A stretch of 64,000 bases of DNA. It comes from Lachnospiraceae bacterium (GTDB taxonomy: Bacteria > Bacillota > Clostridia > Lachnospirales > Lachnospiraceae). Location: contig JAFWWB010000004.1 in the NCBI GenBank assembly GCA_017518185.1, positions 1 to 64,000 on the forward strand, written 5' to 3'. The first letter of the stretch is position 1. Each line of letters begins with the position of its first letter. Both the position numbers and the translations under genes were made by a program. Of this stretch, positions 14,833 to 40,342 are shown one piece after another. The notes beneath the pieces were generated by a model. That model worked only from the letters and a program-made list of their open reading frames with translations, was not told where the DNA came from and did not search any database.

Positions 14833-14868
14833 ATCATATCACCCTCTGTCCAACAAATGTCCAACAAA
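14833..14868 (-). promoter_or_regulatory. Tandem-repeat promoter 1 (giant gene 1)
   Basis: On the minus strand two contiguous copies of TTTGTTGGACA (14868-14858 and 14857-14847), then 8 nt (GAGGGTGA), then TATGAT (14838-14833). The same layout with the same 8 nt gap occurs at 29561-29596 and 40307-40342. No good -35 box exists at 17 nt, so an activator bound at two 11 bp-spaced half-sites, as for OmpR/PhoB-type regulators, is a reasonable guess. Confidence 0.7.
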
Positions 14869-14870
14869 CA

Positions 14871-14899
14871 TAAAAAGGACAGGGTCAGCCTCCTGTCCT
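14871..14899 (-). terminator. Terminator overlapping the end of the deacetylase gene
   Basis: AGGACAGG pairs with CCTGTCCT (14876-14883 with 14892-14899) and is followed on the minus strand by TTTTTATG. The stop codon at 14885-14887 lies in the loop. Confidence 0.75.
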
Positions 14900-16042
14900 C
14901 AGCATTTCCTCAAGCGTGACCATCCTGTATCCCCTGCACGCAAGCCCGGAGATGATGATCTTTGCAGCCTCTACGGACGAGCTGTGGGTGACGTGCATCA
15001 GTACCACCTCACCGTCCGACACATTTTCAAGTACTGCCGCTGCCACACGGTCTTTATCGCGTATCTTCCAGTCATTGGTATCCAGTGTCCAGCCCGTGAC
15101 CTTATATCCGAGCCGCTCCGCCAGCTTCATCTTTGACTCCGTCATTATCCCCATGGGAGGACGCATAAGCGTGGGGCTTACACCGCAGCATTCCCGTATA
15201 AGCTCTGAGGTGCTGTTAAGTGTGTCAGTATATTCCTCTTCGCTTAAGACCGCCAGGCTTTCATGATGCAGGGTATGGTTTCCGATACTGTGCCCCTCTT
15301 CCGCTATCCTCCTCAGTACGGCTTCTCTGTCCTTTATCTCTTCACCGATGATGAAAAAGGTCGCTTTTACACCGTTCTCCTTAAGTACATCCAGCAGTGC
15401 CGGAGTATTCTTTTCATCGGGCGCGTCGTCAAAGGTCAGCGCCACACGCGGTCCGTATCCCTCCGGAGACTTCATACGCGGATATCTGTTCCCGCATACA
15501 TAAAAGAAGCTTTCCGGCATGCCGTCGCGGCATTTCCTGAACCTGCGTATCGTATAGATCTTTTCATATCCGCTCAGATATCTCTCCCCATGAAGGGGAT
15601 CTATCACCAGTACGTCGTCTCCTGTCAGTTCATCCGGCACTATAAAATGTGAAATATCTCTTTCTCCCTTCACTGTCAGCAGACAGGGGATTTCCTTTTC
15701 AAAGCACTCCTTCAACACATCATAGGAATAGTCCACAGGCCCCAGATACTGGAGCGGATACAGCTCCTGTATCCTGTATATATCCATGTCGGCAAATTGA
15801 TTATACGCTCTTTTCTCTTTTAAACGTTCCAGCAGTACCAGCGGATTGAACTTTCCGGTATCCCCTTCCTTTTCTATCCCCCATTTTCTCAGCATGATGG
15901 CAAGGGATGTAACAACAAAGCCGGATTCCCTCATATAATGATAAGCCGCCCCCGGATACTCCGATGCCGGCCAGGCCTCAGTTTTATTATACTGAGGATC
16001 ATCCTGTCTGAAATTTCTGTACAGCTTATCGTCTTCTTTCAT
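14885..16042 (-). CDS. Polysaccharide deacetylase (NodB) with degenerate C39-like domain
   Basis: 385 residues, from the ATG at 16042 that overlaps the previous stop codon (ATGA). Residues ~25-190 resemble a C39-type papain-fold peptidase, with the His (DISHFIV) and Asp (DVLVIDPLHGER) kept, but the usual GCGPTSLA is SGFVVTSLA, so the catalytic cysteine is missing. The C-terminal half is a NodB homology domain: ALTFDDAPDEKN (DD metal/catalytic pair), GHSIGNHTLHHESL (HxxxH), LMRPPMG, GWTLDTNDW and VVLMHVTH. No signal peptide is visible, which is unusual for an enzyme acting on cell wall sugars. It is the last gene of an envelope operon. Confidence 0.8.
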   Translation of the reverse strand: MKEDDKLYRNFRQDDPQYNKTEAWPASEYPGAAYHYMRESGFVVTSLAIMLRKWGIEKEGDTGKFNPLVLLERLKEKRAYNQFADMDIYRIQELYPLQYLGPVDYSYDVLKECFEKEIPCLLTVKGERDISHFIVPDELTGDDVLVIDPLHGERYLSGYEKIYTIRRFRKCRDGMPESFFYVCGNRYPRMKSPEGYGPRVALTFDDAPDEKNTPALLDVLKENGVKATFFIIGEEIKDREAVLRRIAEEGHSIGNHTLHHESLAVLSEEEYTDTLNSTSELIRECCGVSPTLMRPPMGIMTESKMKLAERLGYKVTGWTLDTNDWKIRDKDRVAAAVLENVSDGEVVLMHVTHSSSVEAAKIIISGLACRGYRMVTLEEMLRTGG

Positions 16043-16845
16043 GATCTTGTCACCCTTTCCGGTACCGGCTTCGGACCGAAGCGGTCGTTGTTCAGACAAA
16101 CCTCATCCGGATAATCCAATGTGAACTCATCGTTCTTCCTTAGCTCCGGATCCAGCTCCGCTGCTCTGTAGGAACGTATCAGTTCCTCATCCTCCTTTGA
16201 TATCTCCCCTCTCTTCTTCAGAAGGTCCAGCCTTTTGTTCCTTATCCTTTCGAATACCTCCGGGTATCTGAAGATATTGCCCTTTGTGGGCGCATAGGGA
16301 GCGCAGGCCATTATGAACATCTGGTTTGTCGTCAGTTCCCACGGTTTCTTTCCGAAATAAAAAGCGCATCCGTCAGTTATCCCGTAAAGCCCGTTCCCGA
16401 AATAGATCAGGTTCATATAAAGATCCAGGATCTCATCCTTGCTCATCTTTTTTTCAATACTCAGGGTTATTATGAATTCCGCCGCTTTACGCAGATAATT
16501 TTTCATGAAATTAAAATACAGATTCTTTGCAAGCTGCTGTGTGATCGTACTGCCTCCGGAGATTATCTTTTTTGCCTTCAGATTCAACGCTATCGCATCC
16601 CTTATGTTTTCCCTGAGAAAACCCGGATGCTCATAAAAATACCTGTCTTCTATCTGAAGGAGAAAATGGATAAAGAGCTTCGGCACTTTCTCAACAGGAC
16701 AATAATCCTCTTCGGCCTTTCTCATTTCATACAGTCTGAGGAAAGGTCTTTTAAGCATCAGAATGTTGGCGTATACAACTATACCGGCAAAAAACAGTAT
16801 TGGTATGAGCAATACAGCCGCTATCAGGATAATTGCGGTATTCAT
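16039..16845 (-). CDS. mtgA: Monofunctional peptidoglycan glycosyltransferase (GT51)
   Basis: 268 residues. An N-terminal membrane anchor (residues ~3-30, TAIILIAAVLLIPILFFAGI) is followed by the GT51 motifs: QIEDRYFYEHPGF with the catalytic Glu, GGSTITQQLAKNLYF, and SKDEILDLYMNLIYFGNGLY. It lacks the transpeptidase domain of class A PBPs, so it polymerises lipid II only. Its start overlaps the ABC transporter stop by 4 nt and its own stop overlaps the deacetylase start, so the three are translationally coupled. Confidence 0.88.
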   Translation of the reverse strand: MNTAIILIAAVLLIPILFFAGIVVYANILMLKRPFLRLYEMRKAEEDYCPVEKVPKLFIHFLLQIEDRYFYEHPGFLRENIRDAIALNLKAKKIISGGSTITQQLAKNLYFNFMKNYLRKAAEFIITLSIEKKMSKDEILDLYMNLIYFGNGLYGITDGCAFYFGKKPWELTTNQMFIMACAPYAPTKGNIFRYPEVFERIRNKRLDLLKKRGEISKEDEELIRSYRAAELDPELRKNDEFTLDYPDEVCLNNDRFGPKPVPERVTRS

Positions 16846-18980: not shown

Positions 18981-19076
18981 AGCTTTACTTCTTTACCGCA
19001 TACAGTTTATTGTTTTTCAGTTCGAGCTTACCTCCCGGCAGGTTGCTCTCACCGATCAGCAGCAGTGCGTCACTGA

Positions 19077-19105: not shown

Positions 19106-19143
19106 TTACGGGACCGGAGTTTCTTGTGCTGTCAAACTATATC

Positions 19144-20810: not shown

Positions 20811-20820
20811 AACTGATACC

Positions 20821-21257: not shown

Positions 21258-24200
21258 TCAGTTCGCTCCGTTCGCTGCGGCCTGTTGTCTCCTTGCCTCG
21301 GCGTGCTGTCTGATGGCACTGAACCTTCTGGTCCTGCTCTTCCTGCTCTTTTGGATCATCTTTCCGTTTCCGAGGGGATCTTCTGACTGCATATAGGGCA
21401 CAAGTAAATAGTCCTGGGAATAAACGTAAGGATTGATATCCGTGATCACCAGCTCATCACCCTCTCCGTCGCCCTTTGCCTGGTAATTGGCTATGGTCAC
21501 CTGATGCTCTCCCGAAGTGATGTAGTACATGATCGTTGCCTTTGCGATCATCTCCTTAAGATCCGCATCCTGTGCCAGGTTTGCAAGCATGAATCCATCC
21601 GGCCCCTCTGTATCGTGGAACTGCCGTATCATGTTCTCCGTCTCTGCGGGAAGAGTCTCTGCTGCCGGCTTTCCATCGATATAGAAGATATCAATTATGC
21701 TGTTTATACCGTGCGCTCTCGACCACTCATTGCTGAAAAGATCGGCGCTTCCGTGCCTGGGGTCACCGTCTCCGTAATTTGCGTTAGACGAAACCTTTGT
21801 AAATAGTTTGGCAACATACTTATTGAAATCATATACCGCACCGACGATCATATCGTATACCTGATGGCTGGACTGTACATCGGCCATCATTTTCCGTCTC
21901 GTCCTCGAACTCTTGCTTAAGAACCGGTGTCCCAGTTCAAGCGCTTCGCTGGAAGAGCAATCTTCATCGTTGTACTCAACTCTCTTAGTCAGTTTCATAT
22001 CCAGCTTCTGCTCCTCGCAGGCATAACGGTGGGGCTGTTCGTAGGCTCTTTCCTTATTAAATCTGGAACTCTCATAGAACAGCTTGTAGATGTTCTCCTC
22101 CTGACCGTTGGCCGCTGCCAGTTCTTTAAGGGATATCTTTTTGAAATCATCCTTATCCAGTATGCGCAGTGTTCCCTTTTCACCCGGTGTGTCGGCCTTC
22201 CTTATGGCCTGCTTAAGATATTCGATCCTGCTCCACATGCACTCTTTTTCGTTTTCCGTAAGGGTGCTTCCCAGCTTTATAAAGAGACTCTCTTTATTCA
22301 GCTCCAGTATCCTGTTGGCAGTGCTGCGGCTCATGAGCCTCATCTGCTCGGGAGGCGCAAGCCTGGATATATAGTCCTGCACATCCTCAGCCTTAAGGAG
22401 CCCGCCGCTCATGTCGTTATCGATACCCACTATCCTTCTGACGCGCATGATCTTAGTGCCGCGGTCATTGGTCTTTCCGGTCTCCTCCAGCTCTATCATG
22501 ATATTATCCATGTGACGGTCCATATTTCCGTCGATATAGTCGGTCGCCTCTATATCAGCCAGCTGTTCTATGAGATCCGCTTCATTGTCCAGTTCGATCT
22601 CCCCGTTTCTTATCTTTCTCCTCAGCTGGTCGATATTAACGCCTTCGATCCACTCCATAAGGATACCGTCTTCGCCCTTTACGGCCTCCTTTGCTTTTTT
22701 CCCTTTCTTTTCCTCTTTGTTCTTCTCTTTCTTTTCCTCTTTTTCAATGTGCACATTAGCGAGCTCGGACTGGGCGATCACGTTCTGAGTGCCCATCTCC
22801 CTGGAGACTATGGTCATGGCCACGTTTCTCATATCCAGGTTGCTGCCCACGGGAATGTGTCCCATGGCATAGGTTTGTAACTTTTTCTCTTCCTGGATGT
22901 AGTCCATTCCTATGCTCTCAATGTGCCTTACCACTTCTTCCCTGCCGTCTCTGGTCAGCTCCCTGAATCTTCCCAGCAGTACGTTTCCGGATTTCGGCCT
23001 GAATACATTGGGCCATTTTTCTATGAATACACTGCTGTGTTTTTTCCAGAGTTCTTCCAGATATTCTTCAAATCTCCGGCCGAACTCTTTCGGCTTTATG
23101 GTGCTCACTTTTTTGTCCAGTTTATCTTCAATGTATTGAGCGATCTCCGGTTTTCTGAAGAACGCATCCATATATGTGCGGCCTGCACCCGAAGTGATCA
23201 GGGCAAGGTCGGGGAAGGCTGCGCCGTATTTATCCGACTTACTGCTCAGTTCACTGTAGCGGTTAACGGTTATATTTTTGTTCTCCAGCCTGTTGCGTTT
23301 TGTGAAAGCCACCTTTTTCTGCTGACCGTTTATGGTGCCTGTAAACATGAGTCTCTCATTACCGCCTCCCGCAAACTTTCTGATCTGTTTTTCGGAAACG
23401 GTGATCATTTCCTCACGGCTTTCCGTCAGGATATCCGAAAGCCTGTAGGACTTATCGAACTCACGGCCGTTCAAGGTCGAGTAATCCTTTTCGATAGTCG
23501 CTATCATGGATTCGACTATATCATATCTCCTGCGGTAGAGCGCATTCTTATGCTTCCTGTTCTTACCCTTGAGATAAGTATTTGCGGCACCCAGGAGCTC
23601 ACCGTACATCTTACGCAGCGTATGAAGAGATGCGGGATCCACGTTCTTTCCGTCTTCCGTCTGCCGGTTCGCAATGGTCCTCATGGTGGCTGTAAGCTCC
23701 GTGAGTTTATTGTTCATCACGATATACTTGTTCGAATGCTTATCCGTATCCACACCGGAAAGCCTGCTTATGTAGGTATCAAGCTTCGCCAGGGCTTCAA
23801 CCTGCTCATCCTCTTTATTATGTGCCCGGATGACAGTATTTTCATGACTGGCAAAAGCCTCCTCGGGAAGCTCTGTCGCCCCGCGCATCTTCTTCCATAT
23901 ATCTTTTTGCTGGTCTTTATTCAGCTTAGGGACGTTTTCATGATCATTTCCGTGTTTGGTTATATCGTCCAGGAAGACCTTTTCTTCCGTAACTTCCAGT
24001 TCATCGGGACCCTGATCGGTGGCAAACATCGTCATCTGGATCGTATCATTGGTCGTGACATAGCTGGTGCCCGAAGCGTGATTGGACAGCTTACGGAATT
24101 CAGCCACAAATTCCGGTGTAAGATACCCTCTTTCCACCATCAGGTCCATAAGGCCCTTTACCACTCTTCTGCCTTCACTGAGACCACCGCCGGTGATAAG

Positions 24201-27200
24201 CTCATCCATGTTTGCTCCGTCAAAGCGGAAAAACAGATCGGACATGTGATCCGGCATAGCCAGAGCCAGCATGGGAACAGGGATCTGATCCACAAGCATA
24301 CCATAGGTATTATAAAAGCGCATATGATAGTCATAATATATCTTGTATAACTTTGCCATGCTCTTCAGGTAGATATCCTTTGCACGCTCTGCCTGCTTCT
24401 GATCGGAGATATCCAGATCCTTCATATTCTCGATATTAAGATTCTCTATAAGCTCCAGCACCTCGTCATTGCTCATCATCTCGCCTTCTGCCATACGGCA
24501 AAGAGGCGTCATCATCCTGTGCATATTCGAGCCATATGATATCTTTTCGCCCGTATGAGGATCTTCAAAGCTGCAGCGTGAGGAAAAATCATTCAGCCTG
24601 CTTTTTTCCCTGTCTCCTGCTGTCTCAGTCATCTTATCAATAAGCTCTCCGTAGTGAGCCTGCGTGTAGCCCATAGCTCCGCCCTGAGTCTGATTATGAT
24701 AGTACTTTAAGATCTGTGACGTAGCAGGGGAAGCATTCTTCTCCGCTTTCTGATATGCGGGAGTATATTCCTTCAGATCCCTGTTATTCAGGGCGCCGTT
24801 ATTCCTGAGCTTTTTCAGCTCCTTTACAATGCCGTTCACACCTTCAGAGGTGATGAGATCAAGATTTATCCTGCCGTCCTTGTACGCCCTCTTCTTGTGT
24901 TCCTCTTCAAGGGATGAGATATAGGCAGCTGTACCTTCCGCAAATTCGGGGCTTCCCAGCATCTCAAGCTGTCCTCTTACTTCTGACATGTTCGCCTCAT
25001 GCTGTATCACCGCCAGCAGATCCGGATGTGCAGCCTGGGATCCTGCGGCTCTGCCGCCGAACACCTCTGACATCTTTTTCGCACACTGTGCCGAGAGCAG
25101 GATGAGCTTTGATACTTCCTTCTGCTCTTTGGAGTCATTGTTGGTGTAAAGGGCGGATACCTCATCATTGTAGTGTGAGAGATAATAGGGATCAGTAAGG
25201 AGCAGCTTTCTCACCCTGTAGTAATCGGTCACGGCGGAGAGTTCTTTCATATGCCTGATCACCACGTCGTAGACCGAGGTATCGTTTCCGTTGTTGTTCA
25301 TCTCTTTCAGTCTGTTCTGATACTCAGCATCCGCATCGAAGAGCATTTTATAGCTCTGAAGCTTCTGTGAGATCTCCTCGAGATTTCCGGCTGACGCCGC
25401 AAGTCTTTCATCGGTTGAAAGATCTATGCCGTCAAGCTTGATATTCAGGAAACCGCTTGTAAGTTCATCCATGGCGGCAGTCTTATTCTCTGCGAATTCC
25501 CTTACGATTTTCTCGTTTGCCTCTCCCTCTTCCGTGAAGAAAGCGGACAGAGCCCTGAACTCCTCATCCTTAACCATTGAACGCGTGCTGAAGCCCATGG
25601 CCCTTCTTCTTTTGGCCATATTTCCGGTCACGGCTATACTGTTGGTGCTAAGGGTCTCGGAAAGCGCTATCTTCTTATAAAGCTCAGAACGGGGATTCTT
25701 CATCTTCTTTTCCCGTTCCGTGACGGAAAGCCCGCGCCTGAAGGTGTGCCTTGATGCAAGACTGTAGATCGAGGAAGGCGTAACTGTCCTGAAGCTTCCG
25801 CTGTTCGTATATATACCTCTGGCCTGCCTTAGCTTTAATTCCGCAGAGTTCCTGTTTCCGGCAAGCACGTTATCCTTCTTTTGTGCAAAGGCATTCCTTA
25901 TCTCCTGTGCCTTCTGTTCCTCAAAAGCAAAGGCCTCCGTATCGGGAACCTCCGACAGCTTCCCGTAGGTCTTCAATACTTCTTCCCCGTTCTTATAAAC
26001 TGCGATGCGATCAAGGACTTCCCTTATCATATCTTCGTTCATGGCCGCTTTGATTTCCTGACCCTGTGCCAGGGCCGCATAATTGCCGGAAAGAAGGGGC
26101 TCCAGTTTTTTCGAGATCTCAACGATGTTCATGCAGGCGGCATACCTGTCCGGATCGTTATAGAAATCCGTTCCCTTCTCTGCCTTGAACTTCGATGCAT
26201 CAAAGTTCAGCACCATGCTGCAGAAATGCTCCACAGCATCGATAAACTCCTGCTTTTTCTCCTTTGCCGCGCCGGCAGCCGGAGCATTTTTCTCAAGCAC
26301 TTTGTAGGGACGGGCAAAGGCAGCATCCTTATCCATCCTCGCCTTGCGCTTTTCCGTGAATTCTGTATATCTTTCCTTTGCGCTTTCGACCTTCACGTCA
26401 AGCTTCATCTGCTCATCATATGCCGTAACGGAAGGCTTGAGCATGTCTATAAGCTTCTGCTTCTTTCTCTCTTCCAGATCCTTTCCGTGATTCTTGTAGT
26501 ATTCGGCCTGATCATTTTTGTAAGCCAGTCCCGCGACGTAATGATCTATGACAGCGGTGGGGATCTCCCTCTTTACAGGCTTCTTCTTCTTTTCCGCAGT
26601 CTTGTCTTCCGCCGGTTCTTCCATCAGTTTTTCAAGCTTGGCGTTTATCTGCTCGGCATTAAGGACAAATACGGATTCCAGAGGATTCTTGATCACTGCC
26701 TGATCCTTATAGACCTTAAGGGCGGAAAGATAATAATCCCCGTAGCTCTTTATGATCTGCAGGCGTTCACGGACTGCTGCAAGACCATCCATATTTATGG
26801 ATGTTGCCTTATTCTGTCTCCTGAGGGACTCATAGACATCGAATATAAAGTCATTTTCTCCCCTGGCAAAGTCCACGATCGCAGCATTATCCGCCATCTT
26901 CTTTGCCATATCCTCGAAATCGTTTGCTTCAAATCCTCTGATATCGAATTCCAGGATACGCAGGAAGATCTTTTCTATCACCCCGGTGCCGTCTGCAGCT
27001 TCCTTCTCTGTGGCATTTTCATTCTTCAGGGCAACGACAGCCCTCATGGCCTTTTCAATATCCGCATCCTTCAGATCCTTATCAAAGGCCTTAAGAAGGC
27101 GCATGGACTTTAAGCAGGAGGTCTTCTCATTATCGTTGACATTCCTGATCCCATGTTTGTCTGTAACCCTGTAACTGAGATTAAATGCTCTCTCATATTT

Positions 27201-29328: not shown

Positions 29329-29523
29329 TCACTTACCCTTTTTGCCCTTCTTTGCAGCCTTTGCGGACAGCATGGTCTCCAGAGCAAGTGCCTTATTCTC
29401 CTGATAGCCGCTTTCATCGCCGGAATATAAAGCCCGGAGCAGCTCTTCGGGCATATCTTCTTTAACGCTGTCCCGGCCTGGCTTAAGCTGAACGTCAAGA
29501 CTGTTCTTTTTTGACAGCTTCAT
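29329..29523 (-). CDS. 64-residue fragment-like relative of giant protein 1
   Basis: It contains MPEELLRALYSGDESG and ENKALALETMLSAKAAKKGK, matching residues ~285-315 of giant protein 1, then stops in a lysine-rich tail. The ATG overlaps the stop of the GNAT gene (ATGA) and has GAGGAG upstream. It may be a degraded copy of a giant gene, or a small protein reusing this segment. Only ~38 bp separate it from giant gene 2, so the three are co-transcribed. Confidence 0.55.
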   Translation of the reverse strand: MKLSKKNSLDVQLKPGRDSVKEDMPEELLRALYSGDESGYQENKALALETMLSAKAAKKGKKGK

Positions 29524-30628: not shown

Positions 30629-31587
30629 CTTTCTCTCCTTTTCTCGTTGGCGGTAAAGACCTCGCTTACCTCCTGTGAAGGCTCCCATACCATCTTGTAT
30701 GCGATATTTGACTGAAAGGGAACCCCGGCGATCTCCCTGCGCCAGTCATCAAGTCTGTCTTCTTCCGGAGATTCTTCAATGGATATTTCGGGATACATTT
30801 CTTTTTTCAGCTTTTTTCCTGCGTATAATGCACATCCGACCCTCTCCGGCCCGTATTCCGTCCCGAGGATCTCCTCCAGCAGGGATATGACTGACGGGTC
30901 AGAGGCCAGAAGCGTAAGTACTCCGTTCTTCAGCCGCCCTCCCCCTCTTGACACTTCCCTCAGCATTTCTGCCATGGCATAGTTGACATATTTTGTGTCA
31001 TTTTTTGTATTTCCCGCCAGAAATTCAAGATGTATACTGTCTTCAGACTCCGTACAAAGAAGGACAGCGCGTCTCTTACCGGTCTCATCACACATGACTC
31101 CGCTGAGCCTTTGGGAGAACCTGGCGATATCATAAGTGGACAGCTGTATACCGAAGCTGTCAAGATATTTCATCATACCGTCCCAGTCCGCTGCACCCAG
31201 ATCCTCCAGCGTGATAAATATCGCACCTTCAATATCCCTGCCCAGGTATTTTTTTGCCTTTTCCGAAGCAAACAGTCCCTTAATGTCGAGGGCTATGATC
31301 TGAGCAGACTCAGTGATGTGGTAACCCGCGCTCCTTAGAAGGCCCGTCACAGCTGTCAGGGAATCACTGTAATCAGCCTCCACCAGCCTGACACCGCGGC
31401 TGTACAGCTCCGATTCGGCAACATAAAGAAGACCTTTGCCAATCTCCTCATTCCTGTCCTTCTCCGGTACATAGATCGACAATATACGTGCCGTATCCCC
31501 ATGATACCTTAGTGTTATGGCACTGCTGTCCTCATTTTCGATCCTGAGGATCTGTCCGTTGTCATATGTTATCTGATAAGTATCCAT
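30625..31587 (-). CDS. GNAT-like tandem-fold protein, degenerate acetyl-CoA loop
   Basis: 320 residues. ARILSIYVPEKDRNEEIGKG and VRLVEADYSDSLTAVTGLLR resemble a GNAT core, but the acetyl-CoA loop RxxGxG reads RNEEIG and is probably weak. The second half (MAEMLREVSRGGGRLKNGVL) looks like a second GNAT-like fold. Function unknown, perhaps a non-catalytic partner of the true acetyltransferases in this operon. Its stop overlaps the next gene (ATGA). Confidence 0.55.
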   Translation of the reverse strand: MDTYQITYDNGQILRIENEDSSAITLRYHGDTARILSIYVPEKDRNEEIGKGLLYVAESELYSRGVRLVEADYSDSLTAVTGLLRSAGYHITESAQIIALDIKGLFASEKAKKYLGRDIEGAIFITLEDLGAADWDGMMKYLDSFGIQLSTYDIARFSQRLSGVMCDETGKRRAVLLCTESEDSIHLEFLAGNTKNDTKYVNYAMAEMLREVSRGGGRLKNGVLTLLASDPSVISLLEEILGTEYGPERVGCALYAGKKLKKEMYPEISIEESPEEDRLDDWRREIAGVPFQSNIAYKMVWEPSQEVSEVFTANEKRRER

Positions 31588-31644: not shown

Positions 31645-32634
31645 TCATTTTCCGAACAGCCAGACTGTGAGTCTCTTTTCCTTTGAACCCTTCCGGCGGA
31701 TGACCACTCTGGTCTCCGGAGGATAAGTGTTAACCAGGATATTTCCGATATATTTCGCCATAAGCACTATCTGATCCTTCGAATCGCCGCTGATACTCGC
31801 AAAATAATCCACCCAGTATACGTTCTCACCGTCTTTGTGGAGCAGGAGCATTCCTATCACTTTTCCGTCCTCCACATAGCAGCAGGACAGCGTGGGATCG
31901 AACCATGCCGCAGGAAATTCCGAAGGATCACCTTCAAACCTGTAGGGATGCTCCTTTAAGCAGGCCTCAAGCGCGCTGCGGAATTTGCGGGTGGACAGCT
32001 CCTCTAAGGAGAAGACCGTATCCTGCAGCAGCTCTTTTTCTTCCTCATAATGCTTGAGCAGTCTGCTGTTTACGATCTCTTCCGCCGATACCATGATATC
32101 CTCTTCCGTCAGAGCCCTTTCGACAGGCATAAGCCCGTTTTCTTCCGCAGTATCCAGCGCCTCAGCCAGGGCTTTTATCAGCTCTTCACGCTTTACGGCA
32201 TCTTTTTCACTTTCCCCGGTGACCGGCTTTATAAGGAAGCTCCTGTTGCCCTCCCCTGCTATGATCTCTTCATTAAAGGATCTGTAGCTGAAGTATTCCT
32301 TTTCAAAGGGACAGATCATCATCCTGCAGCCCTCATCTCCCATGACCGCCGTGACGGATGACAGCCCGTTCTTCTCAGCCTTAGACAGAGCCGCGGAAAG
32401 AAGAGCATTGCCTGCGCCCTTCCTCCTGCTTTCGTAGTCCACATACAGCCAGAGGATCACCAGGGTATCCCGGAAGGTACCTCCTATGAGAAGGCCAACG
32501 GGTCTTTCAGGATCATCCTCCTCCACCGCTCCCAGCATAAAACAGGGAAAGGTGGAAGCCTCATCCATATAAGATAAAGGATCCAGTTCCTCAAAGGCCG
32601 TTCTGTTACGGTTGTCAACTTTTATGACTTTCAT
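31645..32634 (-). CDS. Tandem GNAT-type acetyltransferase
   Basis: 329 residues. The first domain has LVILWLYVDYESRRKGAGNA (beta-4 with RRKGAG acetyl-CoA loop). A helical linker (~120-210) leads to a second GNAT-like region with CCYVEDGKVIGMLLLH and NVYWVDYFASISGD. The tandem organisation is also seen in the genes at 30625, 39347, 55047 and 58067, so it characterises this locus type. It follows the 1186-residue gene by 24 bp. Confidence 0.65.
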   Translation of the reverse strand: MKVIKVDNRNRTAFEELDPLSYMDEASTFPCFMLGAVEEDDPERPVGLLIGGTFRDTLVILWLYVDYESRRKGAGNALLSAALSKAEKNGLSSVTAVMGDEGCRMMICPFEKEYFSYRSFNEEIIAGEGNRSFLIKPVTGESEKDAVKREELIKALAEALDTAEENGLMPVERALTEEDIMVSAEEIVNSRLLKHYEEEKELLQDTVFSLEELSTRKFRSALEACLKEHPYRFEGDPSEFPAAWFDPTLSCCYVEDGKVIGMLLLHKDGENVYWVDYFASISGDSKDQIVLMAKYIGNILVNTYPPETRVVIRRKGSKEKRLTVWLFGK

Positions 32635-32658: not shown

Positions 32659-35600
32659 TTATTCTTTTTCTTCCAGCAGGCTCTTCTCTTTATGTTTCAT
32701 ATCAATTATCTGGTCATCCCTATGATCCTCACGGATCTCTATGATCTCATTCTGAGGGTTGATGACCTCATCCTGCCGGATGATTATCTTCTCAACGTTT
32801 TCTATCTGATCTTCTGCCTTTTTCCTTCGCTCTTCCACCTTTCTCTGCCTGTCGGCTCTCGCTGTATTCAGTCTCTCCAGCTCCTGTATTGAGGGTGCAT
32901 AGCCCGCCTGGGCCTCTTTCTGTACACGGTTATATGTATTGTTTTCGTATTCCCTTTGAAGCTCCAGTAAGCTCTTCCTGGTACGGTTGGTATGCCATTG
33001 GTTCAAAAGGAGCTCACCTTTCCTCAGTCCTATCTTTTCATCGAACGCATTCCATTGTTTATCATCTATCATCTTACCTGCTATGTCAACGTTAAAGCTG
33101 TCATCTATTTCCTCCGGAACAAATCCCTCTATTGAAGCTTCCAGCTTATCCAGAGCCCTTCTCTTTTCTTCCGGTGATGCCTCCTGCAGATTCATAACCT
33201 CCAGATATTTTCTTTCAATAGCTTCCAGCTGTTCTTTGTATGCCTCCCTCGCATCCACAACGCTCCTTTTATAGGAGGAAGAATTGAAGTATGCAGCTAT
33301 AGCCTCTTCCTTCCTGCCGTCGAGCTGTGCAAGATAAGCCTCTTCATTCTGCTCTCTGTCAGCTTCATTCGGAAGCTCGACAGCCTCTCTTTCAAAATAC
33401 TTAACGGCAGTATCCGTAGTGCCTGAAAAATCGGCAGGATCAATGGTATTCATCTGCTGCTCACATATCTCAATTATACTCTTTGCGTACTGCAGCCGGA
33501 ACTTACGCTGGATCGAGGGCTTCCAGTGGAACCACTGCTTCTTCTTTTTCCTGATATAAGCCTCTGCAGCCTGCTTCAGTATCCGGAGATTCTCCAGATG
33601 ATCCGCTGCCGTTATATCGTCCGCTCCATCCACGATGGTGCGCATGGCAATCAGCATGGCCTCATACTGGGGTGAATCCTGGTGATCCTGTTTCTTTGCG
33701 TGGGCATTACGGTCAAGGGCTTCCCGTATGGGAGTCTTGATCCTCCGCATAAAGTTTTTGCCCTTTATGGCATCTTTATACTCTGAACGTTGAAGGTTAT
33801 TCGGATCATAATTCAGTCCCTGTATGTATCTGTCATAGAAGTTATTTGTCGTAAATGCGTTGTGGATCGTGTTAAATGCTGTCCGTTTATTCTGGTAAAC
33901 AGCTCTTTTTTCTTCGACAACACGTCCCTTCTCTACCACGATCTTAGTGGCAGCATCTACTTCTTTCCTCTTATTGGCTATCTTCTCTTCAAAGTTCTGG
34001 TCGACTATCTGCTCCGCAAGGTGTCTGACCGTGTCTTCAGCCAGTGTCTTATATCTCTTTCCGTATTTCCCTTCCAGCTCCTTCAGCTTATTCTGGAATT
34101 CGGTATATTTGTTCTGTACCATTTCCCTGTTTTTTTCGTTCTCGAGACTCCCGAATTCATTATAGATGGTCTCAAGAGCTTTCACTTCCGTGTAAAAGCC
34201 TTCGGGCAGGCCCTTCAGGCTCTTCAAAGAGACCAGAGGCCCGCTCATAGCATTCAGAGCTCTGTTCCATCCGGAGAACATCGCATTTTTCCTGCTGTCC
34301 GTCTCTCTTTTTTCTTCCTTGTACAATCCCAGGAGCATCTCTGCCTGCTTGACATTTACATCATAGTACTCCTTCCGGGCATTGGTATGATTGATTATAT
34401 GGTTCCTGACGGTTTTTGCTCCGGTAATGTAGTTTTCATTTTCCCGGATCCTGTTTATCTCTTCTTCTTTTGCTTTGCGCCTGCTTACAGCATTTTCATA
34501 CTCAAGTTTGGCATTATCTATATTCTGCCGTTCATCGGGAGCGGCTTTCTCTTTTCTCTTTTTCCTCGCTGCCTTGGCGTCTTTGAGATCTGTATAGAGC
34601 TTTTCCTTCTCCTTTTCCCCGGCCAGAGCCAGATCCAGCTCCTTCTCCTTTTCCTGAAGCTGGTCGATAAGGAAGAAGATCTCGTTACCTGCGCTTTTTG
34701 CAAGCATCACAGATCCCTGTTCTTCGATCTTCTTCAGGTTTTCCTCCTTAAGATCAAAGGTCCTGTATTCGGGAGGACATAAAGTCTCCGCCATTTCGGC
34801 GATATTGAGGAGCTTCTTTAAGAGCCTTGCGTCAACCGGCTTTTCATTGTCTTCCCATTTGCTCTTCTCCCGATTCTGATTCTTTTCATAAAGCTTCTGC
34901 AGATCGGCCCTGACAGCACCTATAGCCCTGGTCTCCGGGCTGATCAGCCCCCTCATCTCATAGGGGATCTCGGATATGAGTCTTACCAGCGTTCTCGCCA
35001 CACCGGGATAACGGGTATACTGAAACCTCAGCGTCTCCTCATCAAAAAATCCCTTAAGTCTTTTATCGGGTGAGCTCTTTAATACCTCTCCGAGCTTTCC
35101 TCCGATTTTTTCCATATTCTGCTTCAGCATCCATTCATCCATCTGAAGCGCATCGGTAAGCTTACCTACTTCCTCCCCATAGGCTCTGGTATCGTAATCA
35201 TCAACCTTCCTGTCCCTTGCCTCAAAAAATCCGTCAAGAGAAGGGAATTTTGCGGAAAAGGCTTTATCAAGGGTCGGTTCGCAGACAAGATAATTGTCCA
35301 GGGCTTCCTTTTTCCTTGCGTACTCTGCCTTGTTCCTTTCCCAGCTTTCCTGCGAAAGCAGTTTCTGATTCTCTATATCACTCAGTTCCTTCTGGACCTT
35401 TCTCAGATCCTCGTCAGCCCTGTTTTTCTCAACAGACGCAGCATCCAGTTCATCCTTGGCCCGGTTCGATTCGATGAAAGCGTCCCTTTTCTGTGTTTTC
35501 CAGGTCGTAATTGAAAAGCCGGGCTGGTCTACCAGAAGTTTTCCGTACTGCTCCAGATTGGTCTTTTCCACATTCAGATTCTGTTCAAGCTCTGTCTCTT

Positions 35601-36219
35601 TCTTATACTTATCATTGAGCGCGTCCATCCTTTCGAGTTCCGTAAAGAATCTCGTGACGCCGTTAAAGATGTCATCGATCTTATACATGAGGGAATTGGT
35701 ATCCGCATAATCTCTGTAGCCGGTGGCCAGGTTGTAGGCATCCGCATCGGCTTTGATATTCCGGACCTCTCCATTCTGCCGGAAAAGATCCCTGCCTCTC
35801 CAGACCATCTCTTCAAAATCGTGCATATATTCTCCATAGCCGCCTTCAAAGGAAATGGTAAGGAAGCCCTCTTCCCCCCAGACACGGCCTCTGTACCTGT
35901 CGGAATTGGTCATATAGAAAAGACTGTTGGTATCGCCGTTATACCTCTCCTTAAAATCATGGATGAACTGACCGTATCCCACGATCTGATCCTTGACCTT
36001 TTCAAGGCTTTCCCTCTGGGGCCTCTGTTCTTCGCCGTTCAGGGAATTGATCTTTGCTTCCAGCTCTCCTATGACTGCATTGATCTTTTCATACAGTCCG
36101 GAATCGTTGCAGAGCTCCAGAAGCCTGTTCAGGTCATCCAGAAAACCGTCATAACGTGTATTCTCCGGATGTTCTATTACCGGCTTATACGCTTTTCTTT
36201 CAGGTTGGGGTCTGGGCAT
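32659..36219 (-). CDS. Large helical/coiled-coil protein (1186 aa)
   Basis: Starts at ATG 36219 with AAAGGAGGT 8 nt upstream. Almost wholly helical with many heptads (LRKVQKELSDIENQKLLSQE, RAVYQNKRTAFNTIHNAF) and no recognisable catalytic domain. Near residue ~900 is AYIRKKKKQWFHWKPSIQRK, which resembles KYISSRNPFTKKGKIRKAM in the ART-like protein at 56455, suggesting a shared module. No signal peptide or membrane span. Flanked by a 1025-residue relative and GNAT genes. Function unknown. Confidence 0.75.
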   Translation of the reverse strand: MPRPQPERKAYKPVIEHPENTRYDGFLDDLNRLLELCNDSGLYEKINAVIGELEAKINSLNGEEQRPQRESLEKVKDQIVGYGQFIHDFKERYNGDTNSLFYMTNSDRYRGRVWGEEGFLTISFEGGYGEYMHDFEEMVWRGRDLFRQNGEVRNIKADADAYNLATGYRDYADTNSLMYKIDDIFNGVTRFFTELERMDALNDKYKKETELEQNLNVEKTNLEQYGKLLVDQPGFSITTWKTQKRDAFIESNRAKDELDAASVEKNRADEDLRKVQKELSDIENQKLLSQESWERNKAEYARKKEALDNYLVCEPTLDKAFSAKFPSLDGFFEARDRKVDDYDTRAYGEEVGKLTDALQMDEWMLKQNMEKIGGKLGEVLKSSPDKRLKGFFDEETLRFQYTRYPGVARTLVRLISEIPYEMRGLISPETRAIGAVRADLQKLYEKNQNREKSKWEDNEKPVDARLLKKLLNIAEMAETLCPPEYRTFDLKEENLKKIEEQGSVMLAKSAGNEIFFLIDQLQEKEKELDLALAGEKEKEKLYTDLKDAKAARKKRKEKAAPDERQNIDNAKLEYENAVSRRKAKEEEINRIRENENYITGAKTVRNHIINHTNARKEYYDVNVKQAEMLLGLYKEEKRETDSRKNAMFSGWNRALNAMSGPLVSLKSLKGLPEGFYTEVKALETIYNEFGSLENEKNREMVQNKYTEFQNKLKELEGKYGKRYKTLAEDTVRHLAEQIVDQNFEEKIANKRKEVDAATKIVVEKGRVVEEKRAVYQNKRTAFNTIHNAFTTNNFYDRYIQGLNYDPNNLQRSEYKDAIKGKNFMRRIKTPIREALDRNAHAKKQDHQDSPQYEAMLIAMRTIVDGADDITAADHLENLRILKQAAEAYIRKKKKQWFHWKPSIQRKFRLQYAKSIIEICEQQMNTIDPADFSGTTDTAVKYFEREAVELPNEADREQNEEAYLAQLDGRKEEAIAAYFNSSSYKRSVVDAREAYKEQLEAIERKYLEVMNLQEASPEEKRRALDKLEASIEGFVPEEIDDSFNVDIAGKMIDDKQWNAFDEKIGLRKGELLLNQWHTNRTRKSLLELQREYENNTYNRVQKEAQAGYAPSIQELERLNTARADRQRKVEERRKKAEDQIENVEKIIIRQDEVINPQNEIIEIREDHRDDQIIDMKHKEKSLLEEKE

Positions 36220-36266
36220 GTTCTTTTACCTCCTTTGATATATATATTATCCTGATACATATTTTA

Positions 36267-39200
36267 TCAGTCAGTCACGGGATTACCCTTAAGAAACGTT
36301 TTATCTGCATTCGCAGTAGCAAGGAATTTGTTTGCAAAATCCAATAAACTGCTCAGCGTCTGTCCTTTTTGTGCAGCTATTAACCCGTTTTTCATCGGAT
36401 TGGTGATGGCACCGCCAAAAGTATTATAGAAACGGATCAGATGCTTCAGGCGCAGATCCTGCGCATTTTCATCCTTCAGCACTCCGGGATCATGATCTAC
36501 GAGATCATTATCTACCTGGACATTTGCAAAATCTGCGACAACCTCATCAAGATGCATTATCAGCCAGGGCATATCCGGCAGCTCGTAACCGTATTTTTTT
36601 TCAAGGGCTTCGTAATGACCGCGTACATTATCGTAGTAAGTGCGCAGCCCCCGCAGGTTCTGCTCTTTTGCAGCCTTTTTTTCTTCCTCCGTCATCTGCT
36701 GCGGAAAGGCTCCGGCAGAAAGGTCTTTGAGCATTGCATCATAGTCATCCTGACTCATCTTCCTTATTGTAGAAACAGACTCGCTTGAGGAAAATGATCG
36801 GAATATGGGCTCTCGTATCATGGGTTCGGTGTCACCTGCAAGAATATATTTTTCTGCGTGCAGTTTATGATACACCTCCAGCTCAAACATTGTCTGCGCG
36901 TCGTTTTTGGCTTTCGCTTCGGAATAAAGCTGTGCAGCAGCCTCCTTCGAACCGATCGACTGGCCTTTTTCCTTAGCTTCCTTTATCCTCTGCTCTATCA
37001 GTGCTGATGCGCGGCCCGCATATTCCGCTCCCTTATGGACCGGAGGAAGGTATCCGATGGCCAGTTCTGCACTTTCAGCCTCTGTACTCAGGTAAGCCTT
37101 CACATGAGGCAAACTCATAAAAGTCATTTCGGCTAAGCTGATATTTTTCTTCCCCTTTTCATACTCTTTCTTCGCAAATGCTGCCATCTGCCCGCGAGGG
37201 GTTAGTTTTTCATCCAGATGTTTAAGCTCGCTTGACGATACTGCTGCTATGGGATCTTCCAGCAGATCTCCGTACTTAAGTATGGCAGCGCCCCTGCATT
37301 TTGCGCGTAGAGGCTCCATAATTGCCATTTTTAAAGTAAAGGCCTGCTGCATTGCCTGAAACTTACGTTCAAGAGCGGCATAACGCTTCGGATCCGTTTT
37401 TTGAAGTGCCGGATCCGGCTTACCCAGCAGCTTATCTTTGACGCGGAACCCTTCAATGTCCGAAAACTCTTCTTTTGCTATGTCCGACAGCATCATACAG
37501 GCCATGGTGAGCTCGATTATCTCAGCCTGCTTCGCCACAAGCTCATCTCCGTCAAGGTGGTACAGGCCGCCGATATCTGTATCGATCACTTTCTTAAGAT
37601 AAGGAACTGCCAGCTCTTCCGACTCTTTGGCGAGCTCTTTTTGCAGCCCGGCAAGCTTTTTTTCATCCTCCTCGCTGAAGTCAGCTTTTAATTTCGCTTT
37701 CTTCTGGACAAGCTCATTACGCAGGATCCTCTTATACTGAAACTTCATCACCTTATCGTTATAAGCCTCTCCGTCTTTTCCGGGCTTCATCAGCATGATG
37801 CTTCTTGCGCCGTTGCCGCCGTAGAGCTGCTTGACGATCTCAGGATCGTCTTTAAAACACCTCTTGATCGATTCCTTCATCAGCCTGTCTTTTTCTTTGT
37901 AAATATCGGCATACATACTCGCTTTGTCTGCAAGCGCCTTCTCAGTCTCCTTTACATCCTCATCCCCGTTTTCATCATTGTTATTCTCATTTTGCAGCTG
38001 CAGTGCCCGGGTCAGCGTGGCTTCCCAGGATCGGATCTTATCCAGGTCTTCTTTGCTGTAGAACTGATTTCCGTTCTTCTGATCCATATCAAACAGCGTT
38101 TTATACAGCTTGTCCGTATATTTGCGGAGACGCTCTTCTCCAAACTCGAATTTCAGGGCCCCGAGGAACAGTCTTGCCTGATCGTCAGGCGTGCCTTTAC
38201 CGTCACCTGTATTGTGTATTTTTTTATATTTTTCTATCATTTCGGCGAAGCCGTCTATCTCCTTCATGGAGTCGGCGTGATCCTTTTCCTGAAACGTTTT
38301 GAGAGTCGTCATTCCCAGCTCTGTCGCATTCGCGCCCCTTACGAAACGGCCTTTTCCACGGAGGGACTTTACATTATCAAGAAATTTCCCCAGCTCCGCA
38401 TCCTCCTGGCTTCCCTTCAGCAGTTTGATCTTTTCATCAAGCTGGTCAACGGAAAGGGATTCAAAATCTTTTCCTGCAAGCAGGGCATAATAGGGGGAGT
38501 GCATCATTTTGATACGGGTCTCGTAATCATTCCGTATCTGCTCCATCACATCCAGCTTCGCCCTCAGCACCGTCATGTTCACTCCGTCGATCTTATGTAT
38601 TTCAGACAATCTGAATATTTCGTTTGCATGGCAGAGGGCCTTCAGCTTGGCATATCTGGCGGGATAGCCGTCTACAAACTCCTTATCACTTTTATATTCA
38701 AATTCCGAAAGATCGGTTTCAGCTGCTTCCTTAAGGACTTCTTCCAGACCCAGCTCCTGTGTATTCTTAACACTCATGGTCATGAGAAGGCGGTTCATGC
38801 GCGTTGTGGTCCTTTCCGCCGCTTCCGTACCTTCCTGCTGCAATGAAGCGTACGCGCCGAACTCACGGAGAAGATCTCCGTATTTCGCATCCTCATCTGC
38901 ATTCTGCAGAAACTGCTGATTACCGGATTTATAAAAATTCACGGCCGCCTTAAAGACGCCTGTGTCCTCTGCCTGTTCAAAGGCATGCTCCTGCAGGAAC
39001 AGTTCACCCTGCAGGCCGGCAGCTTCAGCCATCCTCTTCGACTGTTTATCCAGCTCGGAGCGGAAAAAAGACTTTTTCAGATGCAGTTTGGAAAAAACGC
39101 TTGTGATCTGGCTATCGGCTTTATCCTTCGGGATCTCCCGCTGGCGCATCCATGCAGTCTCAGCGGCAGCATCATTGTATGCCTTCAGGCGCACTGTTCT

Positions 39201-39344
39201 GTAGTGTTTTTCATGATCGTCCCGTTCTCCCAGAACAAGCTGCATCTGGGCCTGTACCAGCTGGTCCGTATCGGCGTTTTCCTTTGACTTCAGAAGCTCC
39301 ACCCTTTCCCTCAGGGCCTTCTTCTTATCCTGCATACCTTCCAT
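36267..39344 (-). CDS. Large helical protein (1025 aa) related to giant protein 1
   Basis: ATG 39344 follows AAGGAGAT. Mostly helical. Around residue 280 it has MMHSPYYALLAGKDFESLSV, then ~60 residues on GKGRFVRGANATEL, both in the same order as LMSNPYYALLLEKDL and KKYVRGRSMSKLE in giant protein 1, so the two share a ~150-residue domain. No catalytic motif is recognised. It directly follows the GNAT gene whose promoter carries the tandem 11 bp repeats. Confidence 0.75.
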   Translation of the reverse strand: MEGMQDKKKALRERVELLKSKENADTDQLVQAQMQLVLGERDDHEKHYRTVRLKAYNDAAAETAWMRQREIPKDKADSQITSVFSKLHLKKSFFRSELDKQSKRMAEAAGLQGELFLQEHAFEQAEDTGVFKAAVNFYKSGNQQFLQNADEDAKYGDLLREFGAYASLQQEGTEAAERTTTRMNRLLMTMSVKNTQELGLEEVLKEAAETDLSEFEYKSDKEFVDGYPARYAKLKALCHANEIFRLSEIHKIDGVNMTVLRAKLDVMEQIRNDYETRIKMMHSPYYALLAGKDFESLSVDQLDEKIKLLKGSQEDAELGKFLDNVKSLRGKGRFVRGANATELGMTTLKTFQEKDHADSMKEIDGFAEMIEKYKKIHNTGDGKGTPDDQARLFLGALKFEFGEERLRKYTDKLYKTLFDMDQKNGNQFYSKEDLDKIRSWEATLTRALQLQNENNNDENGDEDVKETEKALADKASMYADIYKEKDRLMKESIKRCFKDDPEIVKQLYGGNGARSIMLMKPGKDGEAYNDKVMKFQYKRILRNELVQKKAKLKADFSEEDEKKLAGLQKELAKESEELAVPYLKKVIDTDIGGLYHLDGDELVAKQAEIIELTMACMMLSDIAKEEFSDIEGFRVKDKLLGKPDPALQKTDPKRYAALERKFQAMQQAFTLKMAIMEPLRAKCRGAAILKYGDLLEDPIAAVSSSELKHLDEKLTPRGQMAAFAKKEYEKGKKNISLAEMTFMSLPHVKAYLSTEAESAELAIGYLPPVHKGAEYAGRASALIEQRIKEAKEKGQSIGSKEAAAQLYSEAKAKNDAQTMFELEVYHKLHAEKYILAGDTEPMIREPIFRSFSSSESVSTIRKMSQDDYDAMLKDLSAGAFPQQMTEEEKKAAKEQNLRGLRTYYDNVRGHYEALEKKYGYELPDMPWLIMHLDEVVADFANVQVDNDLVDHDPGVLKDENAQDLRLKHLIRFYNTFGGAITNPMKNGLIAAQKGQTLSSLLDFANKFLATANADKTFLKGNPVTD

Positions 39345-39346
39345 CT

Positions 39347-40171
39347 TTATATCTCCTTAATAACACCGATTGCGGTCATCATCCCGCCTTCATCGGTAAG
39401 CGCATCCCCCGCCAGCTTTTTTGCAAATGACAGCACGCTCTCCACTGCCGGGAGAAAACGTACCGTAAGCTCATCCATGCCCTCCGAAGCTTCAAGAAAA
39501 GCGGCCAGCAGCTCTGTCATGGCTTTGGGATCCTTACAGAAATTCGCCAGCAGACGCAGGAGTATGGTATCTTCCTGCTTTTCGCACATGAGCGCCGCCC
39601 TCAGCTCTTTATCCTCAGGATCTGCCAGTATCAGGGACAGATCCCCGTCTGCCTGTCCGTCATCCAGGGATGCATCACCAAGACCGGCTTCAGCCAGCTT
39701 TTTTCTCAGCTGCTTCTTCTCTATCGCCGGGAGCTCCTTAAGAGGAATGACAGAATACTTTTTCTTACCTGAAAAAAGGGACGTGGCAGAGGCGCGCTCT
39801 CTGAGCACCGAGAGCTTTGCACCATATATCCGCAGCCCGGATACCATGCCACATCCCATATGCGCAAGGAAGGGTTTCATGCCTTCCGTATCTTCGGAAA
39901 ACACCGCCATGAACGCCCCGGGCCCGAAGGCGCGGAGAGACTCCTTCATAAGCTTCTCCGCTATCCCTCTCCGCCGGTATTCCGGCACGACATACAGATG
40001 TTCCAGCCGGATGACCCGGTGTTCATCCTCCGAAAACACTGCTGCCGCTACCGGTTTATCGTCCTCTATGACCCCCACAGCCAGACAGTCTTTCTTCAGG
40101 CCGCTCCCGAGGAGCAGCTCCACAAACGCCTTTGCATTCTCTTTTCCTATGCCCGTAAGGATCATGGTCAT
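39347..40171 (-). CDS. GNAT acetyltransferase heading the long operon
   Basis: 274 residues. A clear N-terminal GNAT: VIRLEHLYVVPEYRRRGIAE (beta-4 and RRRGIA acetyl-CoA loop) and FLAHMGCGMVSGLR (late signature). The C-terminal half is a more diverged region with a second GNAT-like fold possible (LLRLLANFCKDPKAMTELLA). Start is either ATG 40171 or 40165; GGGGG precedes both. Promoter 3 lies ~135 nt upstream. It is the first gene of the leftward unit that ends with giant gene 2. Confidence 0.75.
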   Translation of the reverse strand: MTMILTGIGKENAKAFVELLLGSGLKKDCLAVGVIEDDKPVAAAVFSEDEHRVIRLEHLYVVPEYRRRGIAEKLMKESLRAFGPGAFMAVFSEDTEGMKPFLAHMGCGMVSGLRIYGAKLSVLRERASATSLFSGKKKYSVIPLKELPAIEKKQLRKKLAEAGLGDASLDDGQADGDLSLILADPEDKELRAALMCEKQEDTILLRLLANFCKDPKAMTELLAAFLEASEGMDELTVRFLPAVESVLSFAKKLAGDALTDEGGMMTAIGVIKEI

Positions 40172-40306
40172 AATCCCCCTGTTTTTTTACTGATATTATG
40201 ATATTGTATCATTTTTTTACGTTTTATTCCACCAAAACGGAGGGGAAACCGCCTCAGGGATCTCCTTGATGTTATTTGCCGCCGGATTTCCATTGTTATC
40301 TGTGGC

Positions 40307-40342
40307 ATTATACCCCCCTGTGTCCAACAAATGTCCAACAAA
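40307..40342 (-). promoter_or_regulatory. Tandem-repeat promoter 3 (GNAT to giant 2 operon)
   Basis: Two TTTGTTGGACA repeats (40342-40332, 40331-40321), 8 nt (CAGGGGGG), perfect TATAAT (40312-40307). It gives a leader of ~130 nt before the GNAT gene; I see no gene in 40172-40306. Confidence 0.75.

What the first reader, a model, noticed from the sequence alone, without database searches (positions are those of the whole stretch)
14833..40342. Three promoters with the same tandem 11 bp repeat and fixed 8 nt gap to the -10 box
At 14833-14868, 29561-29596 and 40307-40342 the minus strand has TTTGTTGGACA twice without a gap, then exactly 8 nt (N-N-AGGG-like), then TATGAT, TAAGAT or TATAAT. The 11 bp period equals one helix turn and the usual -35 box is missing, as in OmpR/PhoB-type activated promoters. 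All three drive giant-protein or GNAT genes, so they define a regulon whose regulator is not in this window.
Basis: partly seen in the sequence, partly recalled or inferred. Interest (0 to 1): 0.85.

Follow-up and report, generated by a model that had tools for sequence, protein, structure and literature searches.

The report
Shared promoter code for injection genes
Three switches in this stretch of DNA carry the same doubled 11-letter word at a fixed distance from the start signal; seven more exist in the genome, and comparison with relatives points to one regulator family that turns on microscopic injection machines together with very large proteins that may be their cargo.

Summary
The 22-mer (TTTGTTGGACA)x2 occurs three times in the window and at 10 sites genome-wide (one with four copies); all 10 are exact and all have TANNNT after exactly 8 nt. 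In 35 same-genus genomes a generalised pattern finds 90 sites in 7 genomes, reversed control 0; without the -10 requirement 81 of 91 hits have TANNNT at gap 8. Two 11-bp direct repeats ending 8 bp before -10 is the published rule for SARP activators (PMC10936776, passages).

Candidate regulator: a response regulator (receiver, OmpR-type winged helix, short tail; P0001) encoded with a LytS-type kinase beside one site. Of 20 other loci with this regulator (51-60% identity), 13 carry GGAC-type sites of this geometry; 0 of 60 other loci from the same search do. An eCIS cluster follows one site in this genome and type IV secretion genes follow sites in relatives; other targets are giant kinase-like, Fic and GNAT proteins. 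Best reading: a two-component regulon for injection systems and candidate effectors, working like SARP promoters, though not a SARP proper (no BTA domain). Binding, transcription starts and effector role are inferred.

The parts
14847..14868 (-). operator: two exact 11-bp direct repeats TTTGTTGGACA
14833..14838 (-). -10 box TATGAT, 8 nt after the operator
7477..14787 (-). 2436-aa giant protein; residues about 1420-1949 match the ABC1-kinase-like region of other giants of this genome
   Evidence: no Pfam hit of its own
29575..29596 (-). operator: two exact 11-bp direct repeats, inside the 3' end of the GNAT ORF 29520-30209
29561..29566 (-). -10 box TAAGAT, 8 nt after the operator
29329..29523 (-). 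64-aa ORF with RBS, first ORF after the middle promoter; its MPEELLRALYS motif resembles LPKEMIRALYS in the 2436-aa protein
   Evidence: likeness by eye
21258..29291 (-). 2677-aa giant protein with a PI3/PI4-kinase-like region (residues 2149-2392) shared with regulon proteins of G018 and G032
   Evidence: (below Pfam cut-off)
40321..40342 (-). operator: two exact 11-bp direct repeats
40307..40312 (-). -10 box TATAAT, 8 nt after the operator
39347..40165 (-). GNAT acetyltransferase-like protein (272 aa), first RBS-bearing gene after the third promoter
36267..39344 (-). 1025-aa protein without Pfam or NCBIfam match, same strand, directly after the GNAT gene
32659..36219 (-). 1186-aa protein without Pfam or NCBIfam match, same strand
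31645..32634 (-). GNAT-like protein (329 aa)
30625..31587 (-). 320-aa protein, weakly similar to the 272-aa GNAT protein (no Pfam hit)
30128..30688 (-). GNAT-like protein (186 aa)
29520..30209 (-). GNAT protein (229 aa, Acetyltransf_3) whose 3' end contains the middle promoter

Best explanation
The doubled 11-mer is the operator of a two-component response regulator of the receiver + OmpR-type winged-helix kind (P0001, on contig C67). Two protomers bind head to tail, one per 11-bp turn, the downstream one ending 8 bp before the -10 box. They recruit the housekeeping RNA polymerase to promoters without a well-placed -35 box, as SARP activators do. The kinase next to the regulator (LytS-type, P0002) would switch it on by an unknown signal. 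The regulon comprises an extracellular contractile injection system (eCIS) cluster plus scattered giant kinase-like proteins and GNAT proteins, probably effectors or accessory factors. In related species the same promoter design with a different 11-mer stands before type IV secretion or eCIS genes. Shown here: repeat, spacing, genome-wide set, co-occurrence with the regulator gene, neighbouring injection-system genes. Inferred: binding, activation, transcription starts, signal, operon extent, effector role.
For: 10 of 10 genomic sites exact and with TANNNT at gap 8. 90 sites in 7 of 35 genus genomes, reversed control 0 in all 35. 81 of 91 -10-free hits have TANNNT at gap 8; of the other 10, 2 are inner copies of the own 4-copy array and 8 look like chance. 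One site lies directly after the kinase and RR genes in this genome; in the five site-rich relatives 7 of 8 full-length RR genes of this family have a site about 20-600 bp after their stop. Named genomes: 13 of 20 loci with an RR of 51-60% identity hold GGAC-type tandem + 8 + TANNNT, against 0 of the 60 remaining loci of the same search (Fisher 2.5e-10). In 391 other genomes of the order, 3 of the 4 with GGAC-type sites are among the 6 with an RR of at least 50% identity (8e-6). In G281 such sites stand before the kinase and after the RR. SARP rule: passages of PMC10936776. eCIS genes after an own site; T4SS genes after relatives' sites. Kinase-RR pair directly before the CIS13-like gene in 4 of 4 relatives looked at, with a tandem site of this geometry between RR and that gene (G031, G001) or before the kinase (G020, G001, G026).
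Against: No binding, footprint or RNA data. The winged helix of P0001 scores below Pfam's cut-off (22.4 against 26.2 bits), although 20 of 20 relatives match the family at E up to 0.1. Seven of 20 RR loci show no such site in the DNA held. G178 has the closest RR (60%) and G351 and G418 53%, without a match to the pattern; G202 has a site without an RR at E <= 1e-45. 28 of 35 genus genomes lack the pattern, though all 35 have some match to the regulator at E <= 1e-10, in many only to the receiver. Motif-free scans found tandem repeats near RR genes but no peak at gap 8: in 54 loci gaps 4-15 gave 2 to 5 loci each; after the RR stop gaps 4-8 gave 3 to 4 of 32 loci each, shuffles about 0.1, with 19 loci not parsed; the register of a tandem repeat can slide. 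The 60 control loci are mostly from other phyla and two of them (L249, L250) hold a more distant full-length regulator, so that test is not matched for taxonomy.
Confidence: 0.76

Rival explanations
1. The repeats are operators of another regulator (another OmpR-type or an unknown factor), and the C67 response regulator merely is one more member of the regulon.
For: One site drives genes next to the RR, and in G032 a site precedes the kinase gene itself, as expected for a target as well as for an autoregulator. G202 has a site but no close RR in the sample, and three genomes have a close RR without a matching site.
Against: Unit sequence and RR travel together across families; an autoregulated activator explains the same neighbourhood.
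Confidence: 0.15
2. The sites are repressor operators overlapping the spacer, so that the regulator blocks rather than activates.
For: The downstream repeat lies inside the -35 to -10 spacer, where many repressors bind (recalled); in this genome a TGGACA at spacer 19 could act as a -35.
Against: The gap of 8 to -10 is kept while, by eye, no -35 is kept among species; the same geometry is used by SARP activators.
Confidence: 0.07
3. LytTR-type operators, as might be expected from the LytS-type kinase.
For: The kinase carries His_kinase PF06580 and the receiver's best NCBIfam matches are BtsR and LytR.
Against: The DNA-binding domain matches Trans_reg_C, with no LytTR match. LytTR repeats are 9-bp units with 11-13 bp between them, about 10 bp upstream of a -35 box (passages of PMC6193735).
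Confidence: 0.01
4. A dispersed mobile or structural repeat (MITE, iteron, recombination site) without promoter role.
For: Exact copies; an iteron-like TTTGGTGGACA array exists near ParA-like genes in G011.
Against: Flanks are unrelated (mean pair identity 25.7% upstream, 25.3% downstream; shuffled 26.1%); the -10 box follows at gap 8 in 10 of 10; the unit differs among species while the geometry stays.
Confidence: 0.01

Closest known systems
SARP-regulated promoters (AfsR / afsS box, Streptomyces)
   Same: 22-bp box of two 11-bp direct repeats; 3' repeat 8 bp from -10; overlaps the spacer and -35 region; OmpR-type winged helix (passages of PMC10936776).
   Different: The regulator has a receiver domain and only a short tail (about 45 aa) in place of the roughly 150-aa BTA domain; hosts are Clostridia by the record titles of relatives; targets are injection systems and giant proteins, not antibiotic clusters.
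Receiver-winged helix-BTAD response regulators (L077 and L082, same genus)
   Same: P0001 aligns with them along its whole length, 33% and 31% identity, including the start of the tail.
   Different: L077 and L082 are 372 aa and carry Pfam BTAD; P0001 ends at 265 aa.
PhoB / pho box (OmpR family)
   Same: Direct repeats bound head to tail by winged-helix domains of a response regulator (passages of PMC3348028).
   Different: Spacing of the pho box to -10 was not tested here; the kinase here is of the LytS type.
LytTR regulatory systems
   Same: Direct-repeat operators and autoregulation (passages of PMC6193735); a LytS-type kinase often goes with LytTR regulators (recalled).
   Different: Other DNA-binding domain and other geometry.

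Membership tests
SARP-type promoter geometry | direct repeats with 11-bp period, 3' repeat 8 bp from -10 | tested here: met
   10 of 10 own sites; 81 of 91 hits in the genus
SARP family (regulator) | OmpR-type DNA-binding domain | tested here: met
   Trans_reg_C in 20 of 20 relatives at E up to 0.1; P0001 itself 22.4 bits, below cut-off; the best PDB profile hits are OmpR-family domains, with EmbR only at E 0.73
SARP family (regulator) | C-terminal BTA domain of about 150 residues | tested here: not met
   no BTAD hit in P0001 nor in 20 relatives; only a conserved tail of about 45 residues
Two-component response regulator | receiver domain with adjacent kinase gene | tested here: met
   Response_reg 3.2e-25; His_kinase + HATPase_c in the adjacent gene
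LytTR family | LytTR DNA-binding domain and 9-bp repeats upstream of -35 | tested here: not met
Regulon of this RR | direct binding of the RR to the repeats | not testable with these tools
   needs gel shift or footprint
eCIS cluster (C50) | sheath, tube, spike, baseplate, eCIS_core and ATPase genes together | tested here: met
   CIS13-like first gene below NCBIfam cut-off (90.9 of 370 bits)
SARP-like fold of the regulator | fold comparison | not tested
   structure job interrupted

The most novel reading that the evidence does not exclude
In ruminant-gut Clostridia one lineage of short, BTA-less SARP-like response regulators is the common master switch of injection machines of unlike kinds (eCIS in this genome and some relatives, type IV secretion in others) and of their scattered cargo. 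The doubled 11-mer then serves as a genome-wide tag by which unknown giant effectors (ABC1-like and PI3K-like kinases, Fic, GNAT) can be read off, with operator and regulator changing together from species to species.
Probability: 0.42. Interest if true: 0.85.

Novelty: new variant of a known kind. Interest (0 to 1): 0.72.

Why it matters
If right, a simple DNA pattern names the injection-system regulon in uncultured gut bacteria, including giant proteins of unknown function that could not be linked to any machine by position. It also extends the SARP way of activating promoters to two-component regulators of Clostridia without the BTA domain, which bears on how much of that domain the mechanism needs.

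Tried and rejected
Motif-free tandem scans in 54 RR loci and in the 360 nt around the RR stop of 32 loci (19 not parsed) exceeded shuffles but did not single out gap 8, because a tandem repeat has no fixed register; not used as support for gap 8.

A simple code between recognition helix and 11-mer was looked for by eye in A1: the G281 regulator (GGAC-type sites) resembles those of G006 and G032 (GCACT-type sites) there, so none is claimed.

A site elsewhere on C67, such as before the gene upstream of the own kinase, was looked for in L047 and not found (only the known site).

A T4SS pilin was sought in the own genome and not found. Pilin genes over the cut-off are in 10 of 35 genus genomes: the 5 with 15 or 16 sites, and 5 without the pattern (G013, G014, G019, G025, G033). 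G014 and G033 show a tandem site with another unit before the pilin gene (G033 read by eye, degenerate second repeat); the scan found none before the pilin of G013, G019 and G025. eCIS_core: 5 of 35 genomes, of which only the own one has the pattern; the four relatives with a CIS13-like gene (G031, G020, G001, G026) have no eCIS_core hit.

Paper searches: (listings seen only) returned nothing that by title or abstract start describes this system; one search found 84 papers holding the string TTGTTGGACA, of which the 10 listed are off topic by title, the other 74 not seen.
Full report
OBSERVATION. The three minus-strand elements are as described: two copies of TTTGTTGGACA without a gap, 8 nt, then a -10-like hexamer. 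100 shuffles give no match. In the whole genome (3.33 Mb, 92 contigs; the window is C46:1-64000) a search allowing 3 mismatches returns 13 matches that make 10 sites: C1, C46 (3), C50 (2), C51 (four tandem copies, three matches), C58, C67 (one exact, one overlapping 3-mismatch match), C73. Read in register, 10 of 10 are followed by 8 nt and TANNNT: TACAAT, TATGAT, TAAGAT, TATAAT, TATACT, TACAAT, TATAAT, TATATT, TATAGT, TAACAT. Of 24 single 11-mers, 22 lie in these sites. Flanking sequences are unrelated, so this is not a copied longer repeat.

GEOMETRY ACROSS SPECIES. RR homologues in the genus carried tandem 11-mers of another sequence nearby, so the pattern was generalised to TTGNACNTTNNTTGNAC + 9 + TANNNT. 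In 35 same-genus genomes it gives 90 sites in 7 genomes (G000 10, G010 15, G032 15, G022 15, G021 3, G018 16, G006 16), with the reversed pattern 0 in all 35. Relatives mostly use TTGCTTGCACT-like units where this genome uses TTTGTTGGACA. Dropping the -10 from the pattern (with a final non-G to have the downstream bases printed, so some sites are missed) gives 91 hits; 81 have TANNNT at gap 8, at most 13 at any other gap from 2 to 14, and the 10 without are 2 inner copies of the own four-copy array and 8 isolated hits that look like chance. Of 87 distinct sites (3 duplicates dropped of 90), 79 have an RBS-ATG ORF of at least 100 aa within 300 nt, median 68 nt, against 716 of 1740 random positions.

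THE REGULATOR. The C67 site lies directly after a kinase gene (P0002: His_kinase PF06580, HATPase_c) and a response regulator gene (P0001, 265 aa: receiver, weak Trans_reg_C, short tail) and before a large gene that runs off the contig. In the five site-rich relatives, 7 of 8 full-length RR genes of this family listed have a site about 20-600 bp after their stop (G006 C15 and C42, G032 C206 and C38, G018 C145, G022 C196, G010 C141; the exception is G010 C255, which has a stop in frame and its nearest site 4.4 kb upstream). In G032 a site also precedes the kinase gene. In a sample of 392 genomes of the order, GGAC-type sites occur in G000, G202, G138, G162 and G281; the other 8 matching genomes show mixed AT-rich matches, and the reversed control also hits 6 genomes. 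The closest regulators are in G178 (60%), G281 (57%), G162 and G138 (56%), then G351 and G418 (53%). Three of the four site-bearing genomes other than the own one are thus among the six with the closest regulators (hypergeometric 8e-6). In G281 sites of this type stand before the kinase and after the RR.

INDEPENDENT SAMPLE. By record title 7 of these 20 come from ruminant forestomach samples and 11 bear RUG or RUI isolate codes, which I recall as rumen genome series; the other two are L240 and L248. The pattern TGGAC-6-TGGAC-9-TANNNT (11-bp period, gap 8) occurs in 13 of these 20 loci (17 hits in 316 kb) and in 0 of the 60 other loci (999 kb), used as controls although they are mostly far in taxonomy and two (L249, L250) hold a more distant regulator. 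Gaps 6, 7 and 9 give 0, gap 10 gives 1; at gap 8, period 12 gives 2 and periods 9, 10 and 13 give 0. Exact TTTGTTGGACA pairs occur in L229, L233 and L235. A homologous kinase gene was detected in 17 of the 20 loci.

WHAT THE REGULON HOLDS. Own genome: the C50:55749 site precedes a gene with a CIS13-family match (below cut-off) and, nearly all on the same strand, sheath, tube, PAAR-like, spike, baseplate, eCIS_core and AAA genes; that these form one transcript is not shown. The C50:70809 site precedes a frame of about 1737 codons whose C-terminal 1439 residues carry an ABC1-like kinase domain, followed by more giants of that kind; the C51 site precedes a 2740-aa protein with an ABC1 match; the C67 target (777 aa seen) resembles the N-terminal part of these. 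The window's 2436-aa protein shares the ABC1-like region, and its 2677-aa protein shares a PI3K-like region with regulon proteins of G018 and G032. GNAT genes follow sites in the window and on C73. The C58 site precedes a secreted-looking 1272-aa protein and the C1 site a 392-aa protein without Pfam hit. Relatives: a site precedes the T4SS pilin gene in all 5 site-rich genomes; in G018 the neighbouring genes include VirB4-like and VirD4-like proteins, and in G006 a site precedes the genes leading to the kinase-RR pair. In G021 a site precedes a 1533-aa protein with a Fic domain. Other targets in relatives are lipoprotein-like, chemoreceptor-like and uncharacterised proteins, so the regulon is not injection genes alone. 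In G031, G020, G001 and G026 a kinase-RR pair (RR 37-39%) lies directly before a CIS13-like FERNRYYP gene. A tandem site with gap 8 lies between RR and that gene in G031 (10 of 11 identical) and G001 (8 of 11), and before the kinase in G020, G001 and G026 (9 of 11 each). In G014 and G033 the pilin gene has a site of the same geometry with the unit TTTGCAACACT (G033 by eye).

MECHANISM. The AfsR paper states that SARP targets have direct repeats, the 3' one 8 bp from -10, at 11 or 22 bp period, and that the 22-bp afs box of two 11-bp repeats overlaps the spacer and the -35 element (passages); SARPs consist of an OmpR-type domain and a BTA domain (passages). The geometry here is the same. The regulator is not a SARP by definition: BTAD is absent in P0001 and in 20 of 20 relatives. 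But it aligns end to end with two receiver-winged helix-BTAD regulators of the genus (33% and 31%; BTAD found there), so it may be a shortened descendant (inference). LytTR operators differ in unit, spacing and position (passages).

LIMITS. All of this is sequence comparison. Seven of 20 RR loci and three genomes with a regulator of at least 53% show no matching site; one genome has a site and no close regulator; 28 of 35 genus genomes lack the pattern; motif-free scans did not single out gap 8. The signal, the direction of regulation and the role of the giant proteins as cargo remain inferred. Nothing on this system was seen in the listings, nor in the 10 of 84 papers listed.

Noticed in passing
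G000:C50 (L052, L053, L043, L044, L329): An eCIS cluster with sheath, tube, spike, two baseplate genes, two eCIS_core proteins and an AAA ATPase, next to five related large proteins, four of them with ABC1-like kinase domains.
   Followed up: partly
L180, L181, L136, L168, L122 (relatives): A type IV secretion gene cluster with a STAS-like gene, a SpoIIE-type phosphatase (L180) and kinase-RR genes; no relaxase was looked for.
   Followed up: partly
L047:4815-8081: A 1088-aa protein with a TIR domain and beta-propeller matches directly upstream of the kinase gene.
   Followed up: no
L033 / L051 (G011:C15:16265-16308): Iteron-like tandem array of TTTGGTGGACA-type units near ParA-like genes, without a -10 at gap 8 by eye.
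   Followed up: partly
window 29575-29596: The middle promoter lies in the coding tail of a GNAT gene, just beyond its Pfam domain.
   Followed up: partly
window 29329-29523 and 7477-14787: A short motif (MPEELLRALYSGDE / LPKEMIRALYSDDE) is shared by the 64-aa ORF and the 2436-aa protein.
   Followed up: partly
G000:C51:6964-7007: One site has four tandem copies instead of two; its 2740-aa target has an ABC1-like domain.
   Followed up: no
L162, L193-L195 (G138, G162): In G138 and G162, of another family of the order, GGAC-type sites stand before a secreted-looking protein and a HTH-receiver-like gene, so targets may differ outside the genus.
   Followed up: no
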